Origin: an uncultured Acidimicrobiaceae bacterium
GTDB taxonomy: Bacteria; Actinomycetota; Acidimicrobiia; Spongiisociales; UBA5794
Assembly (NCBI GenBank): GCA_947259365.1
Contig: CAMYMC010000043.1
Coordinates: 24,539-88,538, forward strand
Direction: 5' to 3'
DNA length: 64,000 nucleotides
Part shown: in pieces, positions 30,450 through 32,009 of the stretch
Layout: each line of letters starts with the position of its first letter
Position numbering within the stretch: position 1 is the stretch's first letter
Made by a program: the position numbers and the translations under genes
Notes under the pieces: generated by a model
What the model was told of the DNA's origin: nothing
The model's input: the letters and a program-made list of their open reading frames with translations, nothing else
Database searches by the model: none

Positions 30450-32009
30450 TCAGGGCTCGACGGTGACGAAGCTGTTGACGAGGTCTCGTGCCACGGATGA
30501 CACGTCGAGCCAGAAGCTCTTGTTGTCTGGATCCCCGGGCGCGAAGAGTTGGTCGTACTTGACCCGATCGTCCCCTCGGGGCACCCGGCCGACGGCGCGT
30601 GCTGCGAATTCCTGGAGCTGCCTGGCGTTCGCGAGCTTCGAGTTGACCGCCGCGTAGTAGAGGCCGAGCTTCTCGATGGCGCGGATCTCGTAGCCGAGCT
30701 CGGCGCCTGCTTTCAGCATCTGGGCGATCACGACGAGCACCCTGTCGCCGAAGCTCATCGGTGGGATGACGAACTGATTCCCCGACGGCACCCTGCTCAA
30801 GACATCGCTGCCCTTGGGTCGCAACGACATCCGCTGCTTCAGCCCGTCCAGGCTGAAGCCGGAGCTTCCGGCCAGCACGAAGACGACATGCGCCCGGCCC
30901 TCGACGGTGACGTCGAGGTGCGGCATCAGTACCTCGTACGGCCAGGTGGCATCGGCGTGCGCATCGACCTCGTCGATGAGACACAGCACCGGTCCCTCGA
31001 GGGTCACGAGCCGCTCGAGCGACGCCCGCAGCGACTCGGCGCCTTGTTTGGCGAGATTGACCTCGACGTACTCGCACATGTCGCCCTGGTTCCGGGCGAT
31101 CTCCTGCACGAGGAAGGTCTTGCCGGATCCGGGCGCCGCCCACACGAGGTGGTTCTCCCGGTGGGGCGTGTCGGTGTCGAGCCCGGCCACGACCCGGTTC
31201 CTGGCGTCCTTGAGCTCGTTGAGCACGGCGTCCTCGTACCGCGAGTAGTCACCGACGACCCGGTACCGGCTGACCGACAGCGTGTTCATCGCCTCGACCA
31301 GGGGGTATTGCCAGTACGGGCTGGCCTTGCCGAGTTCGTGCAGATCGTCGTGATATCGCGCCAGGTATTCCTCCGCGTGTTCGAGGTAGTCGGGCTCCAG
31401 CCGACTCCGGAACAGCGGACCCGAGAAGACCATGGCCCAGTCGGCTACGGGCAGCACGTAGTCCTCTGCCGCCCTCACGTAGAGGGGCCACCGCTTCATG
31501 TGCTCTTCCGACCGGAAGAGATTCATGCGGCTTCAGTTGAAGGCGCCGGAGCCCTCCCTCCATTCGACGAAGGGCGAAAGCATGTACCCGACCGCCGTCG
31601 TCGGATCCACATCGAGGAGCTCGTCATCCCGGAGCCGGACAGCGATGGGCTCACCGCAGTCGAGGCATGTCGTGTTGATCTCGATGTCGCTACCAGGGAA
31701 GAGCCAGCGCACGGCCAGCGACTCCATCGCTCACTGGCCGAACCAGCGCTCCACCCCGTCGACCGAGATCCGGAAGTGGGTCGGAATGTTGGAGAACGGT
31801 GCCCACGACTCCACCAGATCGGTGTCGCGGGCCAGCCAGCAGCCGGCTACCGGGCCGGCGTCGGCTGTCTCGTGCAGCACCGATCGCGCCTCCTCGAGGT
31901 CGATGTCGAGCGCGGTCGCGAGCTCCGAGTAGTGGGGAGCCCTGCCGTGGTCGACGAAGAACCTGAGCACCGTTGCATACGACGACTTCGCCAGCTCCGA
32001 TACGGCCAC
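30450..32009 (-). CDS. Probable double-selenocysteine MerB-like lyase fused to an AAA-type ATPase
   Basis: Three ORFs (32009-31731, 31727-31533, 31526-30450) share one frame and are separated only by TGA at 31733-31731 and 31535-31533. Read through they give 519 residues. Residues 1-90 are the winged-helix start of organomercurial lyase. RWFGQ-U93-AMESLAV aligns with the C96-A-L-D99 site of MerB. CLDCGEPI follows at 115-122, and FN-U159-SRMNLFRSEEH aligns with the C159 site and the family's NLFRSE block. Glu96 sits where MerB has Asp99. Residues about 240-519 form an ATPase with Walker A APGSGKT (about 292) and Walker B LCLIDEVDAHAD (about 343). The GTG start has GGAGG upstream. Other genes here stop at TGA, so reassignment is unlikely. 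Alternative: a pseudogene with two nonsense changes. Confidence 0.75.
31490..31531 (-). promoter_or_regulatory. Candidate bacterial SECIS element after the second in-frame TGA
   Basis: Starting 13 bases after the TGA, CUCUUCC pairs perfectly with GGAAGAG around a GGUC loop (31520-31503). An outer GCCGC/GCGGU stem closes the structure. The loop begins 20 bases after the UGA and contains the G-U that SelB recognises. From memory, Escherichia coli fdhF has its GGUCU loop about 19 bases after its UGA. Part of the stem is coding sequence, as expected for bacterial SECIS elements. Confidence 0.6.
31683..31728 (-). promoter_or_regulatory. Weaker candidate SECIS element after the first in-frame TGA
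   Basis: After the TGA at 31733-31731, GAU and GUCGCU pair with AGCGAC and AUC to form a lower stem. Within it GCC/GGC closes a GUGCGCU loop that starts 19 bases after the UGA. The apical stem is only three pairs, so this is less convincing than the second element. A CGGCCAG/CUGGCCG pairing across the TGA competes with it. Confidence 0.35.

What the first reader, a model, noticed from the sequence alone, without database searches (positions are those of the whole stretch)
30450..32009. MerB-like lyase with two in-frame TGAs at both catalytic cysteine positions, fused to an ATPase
Seen: three consecutive minus-strand ORFs are in one frame, broken only by TGA at codons 93 and 159. Known: organomercurial lyase MerB uses C96, D99 and C159. 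Alignment by eye puts codon 93 on C96 (FGQ-U-AME against W-C-ALD) and codon 159 on C159 (FN-U-SRMNLFRSEEH against the FTC-STINLFRSE pattern of MerB relatives). A random pair of nonsense mutations hitting exactly the two active-site cysteines is very unlikely. Inference: this is a double selenocysteine lyase, plausibly acting on organomercury or another soft organometal, with selenol nucleophiles, coupled to an AAA-type ATPase. I know of no described protein with this combination, but I could not search.
Basis: partly seen in the sequence, partly recalled or inferred. Interest (0 to 1): 0.93.

Follow-up and report, generated by a model that had tools for sequence, protein, structure and literature searches.

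The report
Double-selenocysteine mercury-lyase-like protein with ATPase
In this bacterial gene the two cysteine positions with which a mercury-detoxifying enzyme grips its target both carry UGA codons predicted to insert selenocysteine; the same pair recurs in many other bacteria, and the protein likely captures and splits metal-carbon compounds, with an attached ATPase that would report the event.

Summary
The minus-strand frame 30450-32009 reads through two TGAs, at codons 93 and 159, which align to MerB Cys96 and Cys159. Of 87 non-duplicate loci (window included), 70 carry TGA at both places and 17 carry a Cys codon plus TGA. Both UGAs are followed by a SECIS-like hairpin: at site 2 nearly invariant in nucleotides; at site 1 the bases flanking the loop GU are Watson-Crick partners in 62 of 70 genes (shuffle mean 26.5) but in 4 of 17 Cys genes. 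The genome has selA, selB, selD and tRNA-Sec. By sequence this is a double selenoprotein; selenium itself is untested.

The parts
30450..32009 (-). whole gene: MerB-like domain + AAA+ ATPase, 519 codons with two in-frame TGAs, terminal TGA at 30450-30452
31305..32009 (-). MerB-like domain, residues 1-235 (winged-helix-like N-terminal part and MerB core)
31731..31733 (-). TGA codon 93, predicted Sec, at the MerB Cys96 column
   Evidence: column; TGA in 70 and Cys codon in 17 of 87 loci
31722..31724 (-). Glu96, at the MerB Asp99 column
   Evidence: Glu in 86 and Asp in 1 of 87 loci
31703..31719 (-). SECIS-like hairpin 1: nt 12-28 after UGA 93, six-pair stem, loop CGUGC
   Evidence: N-GU-N' Watson-Crick in 62 of 70 double-TGA genes, 4 of 17 Cys genes; lowest-energy fold of nt 10-30 in the window, -7.5 kcal/mol, but not of the whole 45 nt
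31656..31667 (-). CxxC motif, Cys115 and Cys118
   Evidence: CxxC found in 66 of 70 double-TGA and 10 of 17 Cys+TGA loci
31533..31535 (-). TGA codon 159, predicted Sec, at the MerB Cys159 column
   Evidence: TGA in 87 of 87 loci
31503..31520 (-). SECIS-like hairpin 2: CUCUUCC-GGUC-GGAAGAG, nt 13-30 after UGA 159
   Evidence: codons TTC, CGG, TCG in 70 of 70 double-TGA genes; compensatory pairs in a clade of seven; -9.6 kcal/mol in the window
31524..31526 (-). Met162 codon, at which databases start many members as 'AAA family ATPase'
   Evidence: 75 of 120 listed AAA-part hits start at this Met
30453..31304 (-). AAA+ ATPase module, residues 236-519
   Evidence: PF00004 27 bits against cut-off 21.2; AlphaFold pLDDT 87.3; AAA+ matches in the PDB; Walker A/B positions invariant in 29 sequences
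32014..32020 (-). GGAGGTG, a Shine-Dalgarno-like stretch four bases before the GTG start
   Evidence: read; not tested

Best explanation
This gene encodes a MerB-like protein whose two catalytic-cysteine positions both carry UGA codons that are predicted to insert selenocysteine, and the paired selenols likely capture and cleave a soft organometal (organomercury-like) while the fused AAA+ ATPase would turn that event into a cellular signal. Shown by sequence: the two UGAs at the MerB Cys96 and Cys159 columns, their conservation in many bacteria, Cys at site 1 in some relatives, covarying or invariant hairpins after both, and selA, selB, selD and tRNA-Sec in the same genome. Inferred: selenocysteine is actually inserted; the selenolates take the metal of an R-M+ compound as Cys96 and Cys159 take mercury in MerB; Glu96 protonates the leaving carbon; the C-terminal ATPase, replaced in a sister branch by a class III nucleotidyl cyclase, reads out occupancy or turnover. 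My odds for the steps: Sec at both sites 0.96; soft (organo)metal capture by both 0.65; readout by the fused module 0.5.
For: TGA/TGA in 70 of 87 loci, Cys+TGA in 17. Site-1 loop pairing 62 of 70 against shuffle mean 26.5 and maximum 44 of 100000, 4 of 17 with Cys; pair type changes at least 19 times on the tree. Site-2 codons TTC, CGG, TCG in 70 of 70. Folding against synonymous recoding: mean z -1.95 (site 2), -0.78 (site 1), -0.01 (site 1 with Cys), -0.34 to 0.03 in eight control windows. Sec genes in the genome; selB over the cut-off in 6 of 6 own-class genomes showing both TGAs against 220 of 395 in the class, and in 30 of 33 named genomes tested. MerB fold and columns. Shared outputs with other input domains.
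Against: No selenium, enzyme or signalling measurement exists here. selB is not over the cut-off in 3 of 33 genomes (those of L073, L081, L126). For the window's own 45 nt after UGA 93 the lowest-energy fold is not hairpin 1; the same holds for 15 of 70 genes, and the site-1 z is modest. On paths that share no branch the joint change of nt 18 and 21 is significant for C/G (p 0.03) but not for G/C (p 0.125). Asp99 is Glu. No recurrent neighbour gene points to a substrate. 71 of 87 members have no fused module, so the readout cannot be the core function. Scores lie far below the MerB and SaoL cut-offs.
Confidence: 0.6

Rival explanations
1. A receptor and not an enzyme: the Sec-Sec pair binds a soft metal ion, organometal or electrophile nearly irreversibly, and the fused ATPase or cyclase is switched by occupancy, without cleavage of a carbon-metal bond.
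For: The ATPase and cyclase modules also follow alpha/beta hydrolases, and the ATPase a YheO-like PAS domain, so input domains are exchanged in front of shared outputs; no mer genes recur next to the gene.
Against: 71 of 87 members have no fused output; the acid position is Glu in 86 and Asp in 1 of 87, which a mere binder would not need.
Confidence: 0.22
2. A selenol redox or metal-storage protein of MerB fold that handles inorganic soft metals or peroxides and never meets an organometal.
For: Many selenoproteins are redox proteins (PMC13188914, section 7, part 1); a CxxC is present in 66 of 70 double-TGA loci.
Against: The predicted Sec residues, the acid and the fold coincide with the MerB active site; the CxxC is absent in 4 of 70 and 7 of 17.
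Confidence: 0.13
3. UGA is not read as Sec: it is decoded as another residue such as Trp, or serves as a regulated stop with restart at Met162 to make the ATPase alone.
For: Nine of 12 full-length MerB-like hits in the protein search show Trp at both columns, as a TGA=Trp gene caller would print; databases start many members at Met162.
Against: TGA closes 59 of 80 open frames over 300 codons in the window; tRNA-Sec, selA, selB and selD are present; the hairpins are tied to TGA at site 1 and weaken where Cys is encoded; stand-alone members have the same Met with nothing behind it to restart.
Confidence: 0.03
4. Pseudogene or sequencing error.
For: None beyond the stops themselves.
Against: 70 of 87 loci from several phyla have TGA, and none has TAA or TAG, at these two codons.
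Confidence: 0.01

Closest known systems
MerB organomercurial lyase (1s6l, 3f0o) and MerB2 (5c17)
   Different: Both Cys columns carry predicted Sec; Asp99 is Glu; 33 and 31 bits against MerB cut-offs 193 and 200; no mer genes recur next to it; fused outputs in one clade
SaoL, MerB-like organometallic selenoprotein (NF040728; listed in PMC13188914 with one Sec, motif CU)
   Same: MerB-related and Sec-containing
   Different: One listed Sec against two predicted here; 41.2 bits against cut-off 140. I had no SaoL sequence, so its Sec column was not compared
MbdU, metal-binding double selenoprotein (NF045648)
   Same: Two Sec residues and a metal-related name
   Different: Profile of 468 positions; no match in the genome at E <= 1 nor of six members at E <= 10
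Alpha/beta hydrolase fused to the same AAA module (P0090, P0118) or to a class III cyclase (P0242, P0243, P0245, P0258)
   Same: Same output modules behind or beside an enzyme-like domain
   Different: The partner domain is an alpha/beta hydrolase, not a MerB-like Sec domain

Membership tests
Bacterial selenoprotein | in-frame UGA at a column where relatives have Cys | tested here: met
   site 1: TGA 70, Cys codon 17 of 87. Site 2: TGA 87 of 87; Cys there in the fragment P0018, in the distant L041 and in MerB
Bacterial selenoprotein | bSECIS constraints as quoted in PMC13188914: stem 4-16 bp, loop 3-9 nt with G in the first two places, 16-37 nt from UGA, MFE <= -7.5 | tested here: met
   window: loops begin 18 and 20 nt after UGA, stems 6 and 7 bp, -7.5 (at the limit) and -9.6 kcal/mol on the hairpin pieces (model). 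The published loop pattern allows one more base inside the N-N' pair than is seen here; the whole 45-nt fold at site 1 differs
Bacterial selenoprotein | selA, selB, selC, selD in the genome | tested here: met
   selA 420.3, selB 321.3, selD 390.9 bits, all over cut-off; tRNA-Sec 72.9 bits, anticodon tca
Bacterial selenoprotein | selenium in the protein | not testable with these tools
   needs 75Se or mass spectrometry
MerB superfamily (PF03243) | Pfam cut-off and MerB fold | tested here: met
MerB proper (NF033555, NF009710) | curated score cut-off | tested here: not met
   31 against 200 and 33 against 193 bits
MerB proper (NF033555, NF009710) | Cys96, Asp99, Cys159 | tested here: not met
   TGA (predicted Sec), Glu, TGA; works-like is not excluded
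MerB proper (NF033555, NF009710) | cleavage of organomercury | not testable with these tools
   assay needed
SaoL (NF040728) | curated score cut-off 140 | tested here: not met
   41.2 bits; six members 16.4 to 53.4 bits
MbdU (NF045648) | curated score cut-off 600 | tested here: not met
   no match at E <= 1 in the genome
AAA ATPase (PF00004) | Pfam cut-off, Walker A and B, AAA+ fold | tested here: met
   27 bits against 21.2; conserved positions; PDB matches
AAA ATPase (PF00004) | ATP hydrolysis | not testable with these tools
   assay needed

The most novel reading that the evidence does not exclude
The fused members are selenocysteine-based signal receptors: a Sec-Sec pair on a MerB scaffold senses organometals or soft metals and drives an AAA+ ATPase or, after a swap of the output module, a cyclic-nucleotide cyclase. 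They would be signal-transducing selenoproteins, a kind I found no paper on in my searches, resting on a phylum-spanning family of double-Sec organometal lyases.
Probability: 0.4. Interest if true: 0.93.

Novelty: new variant of a known kind. Interest (0 to 1): 0.84.

Why it matters
It adds a family in which both metal ligands of a well-studied detoxification fold are predicted selenocysteine, in records named Actinomycetota, Chloroflexota, Deltaproteobacteria, Nitrospirae and Gammaproteobacteria among others. That allows a clean test of what selenium buys, because the scaffold exists as C/C (MerB), C/U and U/U. It also shows that many entries named 'AAA family ATPase' or 'class 3 adenylate cyclase' look like fragments cut at a Sec codon. 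If the readout holds, it joins selenium biology to signal transduction. The record of an isolate, Desulforhabdus sp. TSK (L071), offers a way to experiment.

Tried and rejected
Pseudogene or error: rejected by 70 of 87 TGA/TGA loci. Altered code: TGA closes 59 and TAG 21 of 80 open frames over 300 codons in the window (frames of all six readings, not genes). SaoL, MerB proper and MbdU as names: cut-offs not met. Rfam: no SECIS family matched; the window gave one tRNA at gathering level, and 31300-32100 one match below its family's gathering score, a microRNA family at E 6.6. Conserved operon: all-against-all comparison of neighbour ORFs around 91 loci (five of them duplicates) found no constant partner; the largest cluster, of response-regulator type by eye, touched 8 loci. 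Viral contigs: 10 pattern matches, none a relative. PADLOC: only mad8 at E 0.0038, over residues 272-307.

Not pursued: G125:C107 (2 TGA, 1 TAG) was not parsed; 20 weak matches (E 5.7e-12 to 3.7e-6) with no stop inside, of which I only looked at some translations (L041 has Cys at both columns). Cys/Cys members: the search with the MerB-like part of L021 gave 42 hits; of its 12 full-length MerB-like ones none has Cys at both columns (nine W/W, one S/C, two S/W), but that search needs shared words and is not exhaustive, and my genome scan used patterns from an alignment that has TGA at site 2 throughout, so Cys at site 2 may be under-sampled. Of 226 relatives found only the 80 kept were read.

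Literature: searches. Seen: PMC13188914 (passages; section 7 parts 1 and 2 of 3, which hold its table), PMC9312934 (passages), PMC10418091 (passages), PMC1794560 (passages); all other papers only as listings. In these I saw no MerB-like protein with two Sec and no Sec protein fused to a cyclase. Haft and Gwadz 2023 (J Bacteriol 205 e00259-22), by its title a likely source for Sec proteins in organometal biochemistry, is not held and was not read, so a mention there or in other subscription journals cannot be excluded.

Full report
What is there. On the minus strand, 32009 to 30450, one frame of 519 codons is broken only by TGA at codons 93 and 159 and ends in TGA. Read through, it is a MerB-like domain (PF03243, residues 72-190, 5.5e-19) followed by an AAA ATPase (PF00004, residues 288-387). 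A profile of 52 MerB-like domains of the family finds at E <= 0.001 five distinct PDB sequences, all MerB, best MerB2 5c17 at 2.5e-14; the printed alignments put codon 93 on Cys96, Glu96 on Asp99 and codon 159 on Cys159 (that these three are the catalytic residues is recalled).

It is not chance. In 395 genomes of the same class, 43 had a match at E <= 1e-5, among them one single-contig genome (G022) with the whole fusion, 65% identical and with the same two TGAs. A scan of GTDB contigs gave 226 relatives, of which the best 80 were kept; of these 80, 67 have TGA at both sites and 13 a Cys codon and TGA (72 parsed: 66 and 6; the other 8 read: 1 and 7). With the window and 11 class loci that makes 92 loci: TGA/TGA 73, TGT/TGA 11, TGC/TGA 8. 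I dropped five loci that are the same contigs as others (L067, L068, L074, L097, L115): 87 remain, 70 double and 17 Cys+TGA. Records titled Actinomycetota, Chloroflexota, Deltaproteobacteria, Gammaproteobacteria, Nitrospirae, Rokubacteria and Lambdaproteobacteria are among them; 79 of the 80 contig titles are marked MAG, and one is the isolate Desulforhabdus sp. TSK. In the phylum of L072 (by its title Chloroflexota) it is rare: 4 of 400 genomes at E <= 1e-30, three of the four already in hand.

Selection on the RNA. After UGA 159 comes CUCUUCC-GGUC-GGAAGAG. Its codons Phe TTC, Arg CGG and Ser TCG are the same in 70 of 70 double genes, while CGG is 26% of Arg and TCG 24% of Ser codons elsewhere in these genes. 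In seven loci (six gammaproteobacterial titles and one actinobacterial) the protein has Ala-Cys for Arg-Ser and two pairs flip together, keeping the stem. After UGA 93 a six-pair stem (nt 12-17 with 23-28) carries an apex N-GU-N'; N and N' are Watson-Crick partners in 62 of 70, against 26.5 on average and 44 at most in 100000 shuffles, and the pair type changes at least 19 times on the tree. On paths that share no branch (starred branches only), nt 18 = C and nt 21 = G moved together in 5.5 of 6 pairs and never against each other (median p 0.03); for G and C it was 4.1 of 8, none against (median p 0.125). Where site 1 is Cys, the partners match in 4 of 17 and the hairpin is the lowest-energy fold of the piece in 5 of 17, against 69 of 70. 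L066, a Cys member inside the double clade, still carries the hairpin, as a recent Sec-to-Cys change would leave it. Against synonymous recoding the mean z is -1.95 at site 2 and -0.78 at site 1 in double genes; in the 17 Cys+TGA genes -1.36 at site 2 and -0.01 at site 1; in eight control windows -0.34 to 0.03. The features meet the bSECIS constraints quoted in PMC13188914 (passages), at the energy limit for hairpin 1, and with one base fewer between N and N' than in the published loop pattern. Against it: for the window's own 45 nt after UGA 93 the lowest-energy fold is a different one, as in 15 of 70 genes.

Machinery. The genome (3.34 Mb, 50 contigs, 94% complete) has selA at C31:22258-23583 with selB just behind it at C31:23607-25388, selD with one in-frame TGA of its own, and a tRNA-Sec with anticodon TCA. 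The two tRNA-Sec copies are identical and lie at contig ends, so they are probably one gene. selB passes the cut-off in 6 of 6 own-class genomes in which I saw both TGAs (G000, G022, G125, G152, G210, G349), against 220 of 395 in the class. Of 33 named genomes that I chose from the 80, 30 pass; the misses are the genomes of L073, L081 (a single-chromosome MAG) and L126. The same genome has a second MerB-like gene with Cys at site 1 and TGA at site 2, followed by GCUUCC-GGUC-GGAAGC.

How it most likely works. By analogy with MerB (mechanism recalled, not tested here), the two ligands take the metal of R-M+ and the acid protonates the carbon. Here the ligands would be selenolates and the acid Glu (86 of 87, Asp in one). 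Selenolates bind mercury more tightly than thiolates (recalled), which could serve scavenging at trace level or sensing. No neighbour gene recurs, though two YbjQ 'putative heavy-metal-binding' genes and a PrsW protease gene lie just upstream in the window.

Known or new. SaoL is a known Sec-containing MerB relative, listed with one Sec and a CU motif; our domain scores 41 bits against its cut-off of 140. MbdU, a known double selenoprotein, does not match. The review PMC13188914 speaks of 119 families or subfamilies; its table, seen, has SaoL as the only MerB-like row. The Haft and Gwadz paper is not held. I call it a new variant of a known kind: MerB fold and bacterial Sec insertion are known; the double-Sec active site and the fusions to ATPase and cyclase I did not find described in the searches.

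Noticed in passing
L001 (G000:C1:100998-101357): Second MerB-like gene in the same genome: Cys at site 1, TGA at site 2, with its own GGUC-loop hairpin.
   Followed up: partly
L021, L022, L023, L032, L063, L066: MerB-like domain with TGA at site 2 (and at site 1 except L066; not covered in L032) in frame with a class III nucleotidyl cyclase; by eye a His stands where such cyclases usually have Asn (recalled), so activity is unsure.
   Followed up: partly
P0090, P0118, L024, L025: The same AAA module fused to alpha/beta hydrolases or to a YheO-like PAS domain: an undescribed-looking input/output set worth its own study.
   Followed up: partly
window 32102-32761, 32758-33207, 33209-33898 (minus): PrsW-type protease and two YbjQ 'putative heavy-metal-binding' genes just upstream on the same strand; no evidence of a shared operon.
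   Followed up: no
window 29020-30429 (minus): DNA photolyase directly downstream on the same strand.
   Followed up: no
L028/L057 (G257:C6): Two MerB-like genes with TGA at site 2, on opposite strands within about 1 kb.
   Followed up: no
G396, G402, G416, G420, G422, G563: Some genomes carry two or three double-TGA MerB-like genes.
   Followed up: no
genomes of L073, L081, L126: Double-TGA gene present but no selB over the cut-off; the L081 record is a single chromosome (CP070811.1). Unexplained.
   Followed up: no
P0122-P0133: Twelve full-length MerB-like hits, nine with Trp at both columns and three with Ser at site 1; the Trp probably comes from gene calling with TGA as Trp, the Ser is unexplained.
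   Followed up: no
P0018: Fragment that starts just after site 1 and has Cys at site 2 before the ATPase: perhaps a U/C member.
   Followed up: no
L020/L049 (G022:C1:1412111-1412284): A short second copy of the ATPase C-terminus (residues 461-518, 53%) with a TAG, about 2.5 kb behind the fusion gene.
   Followed up: no
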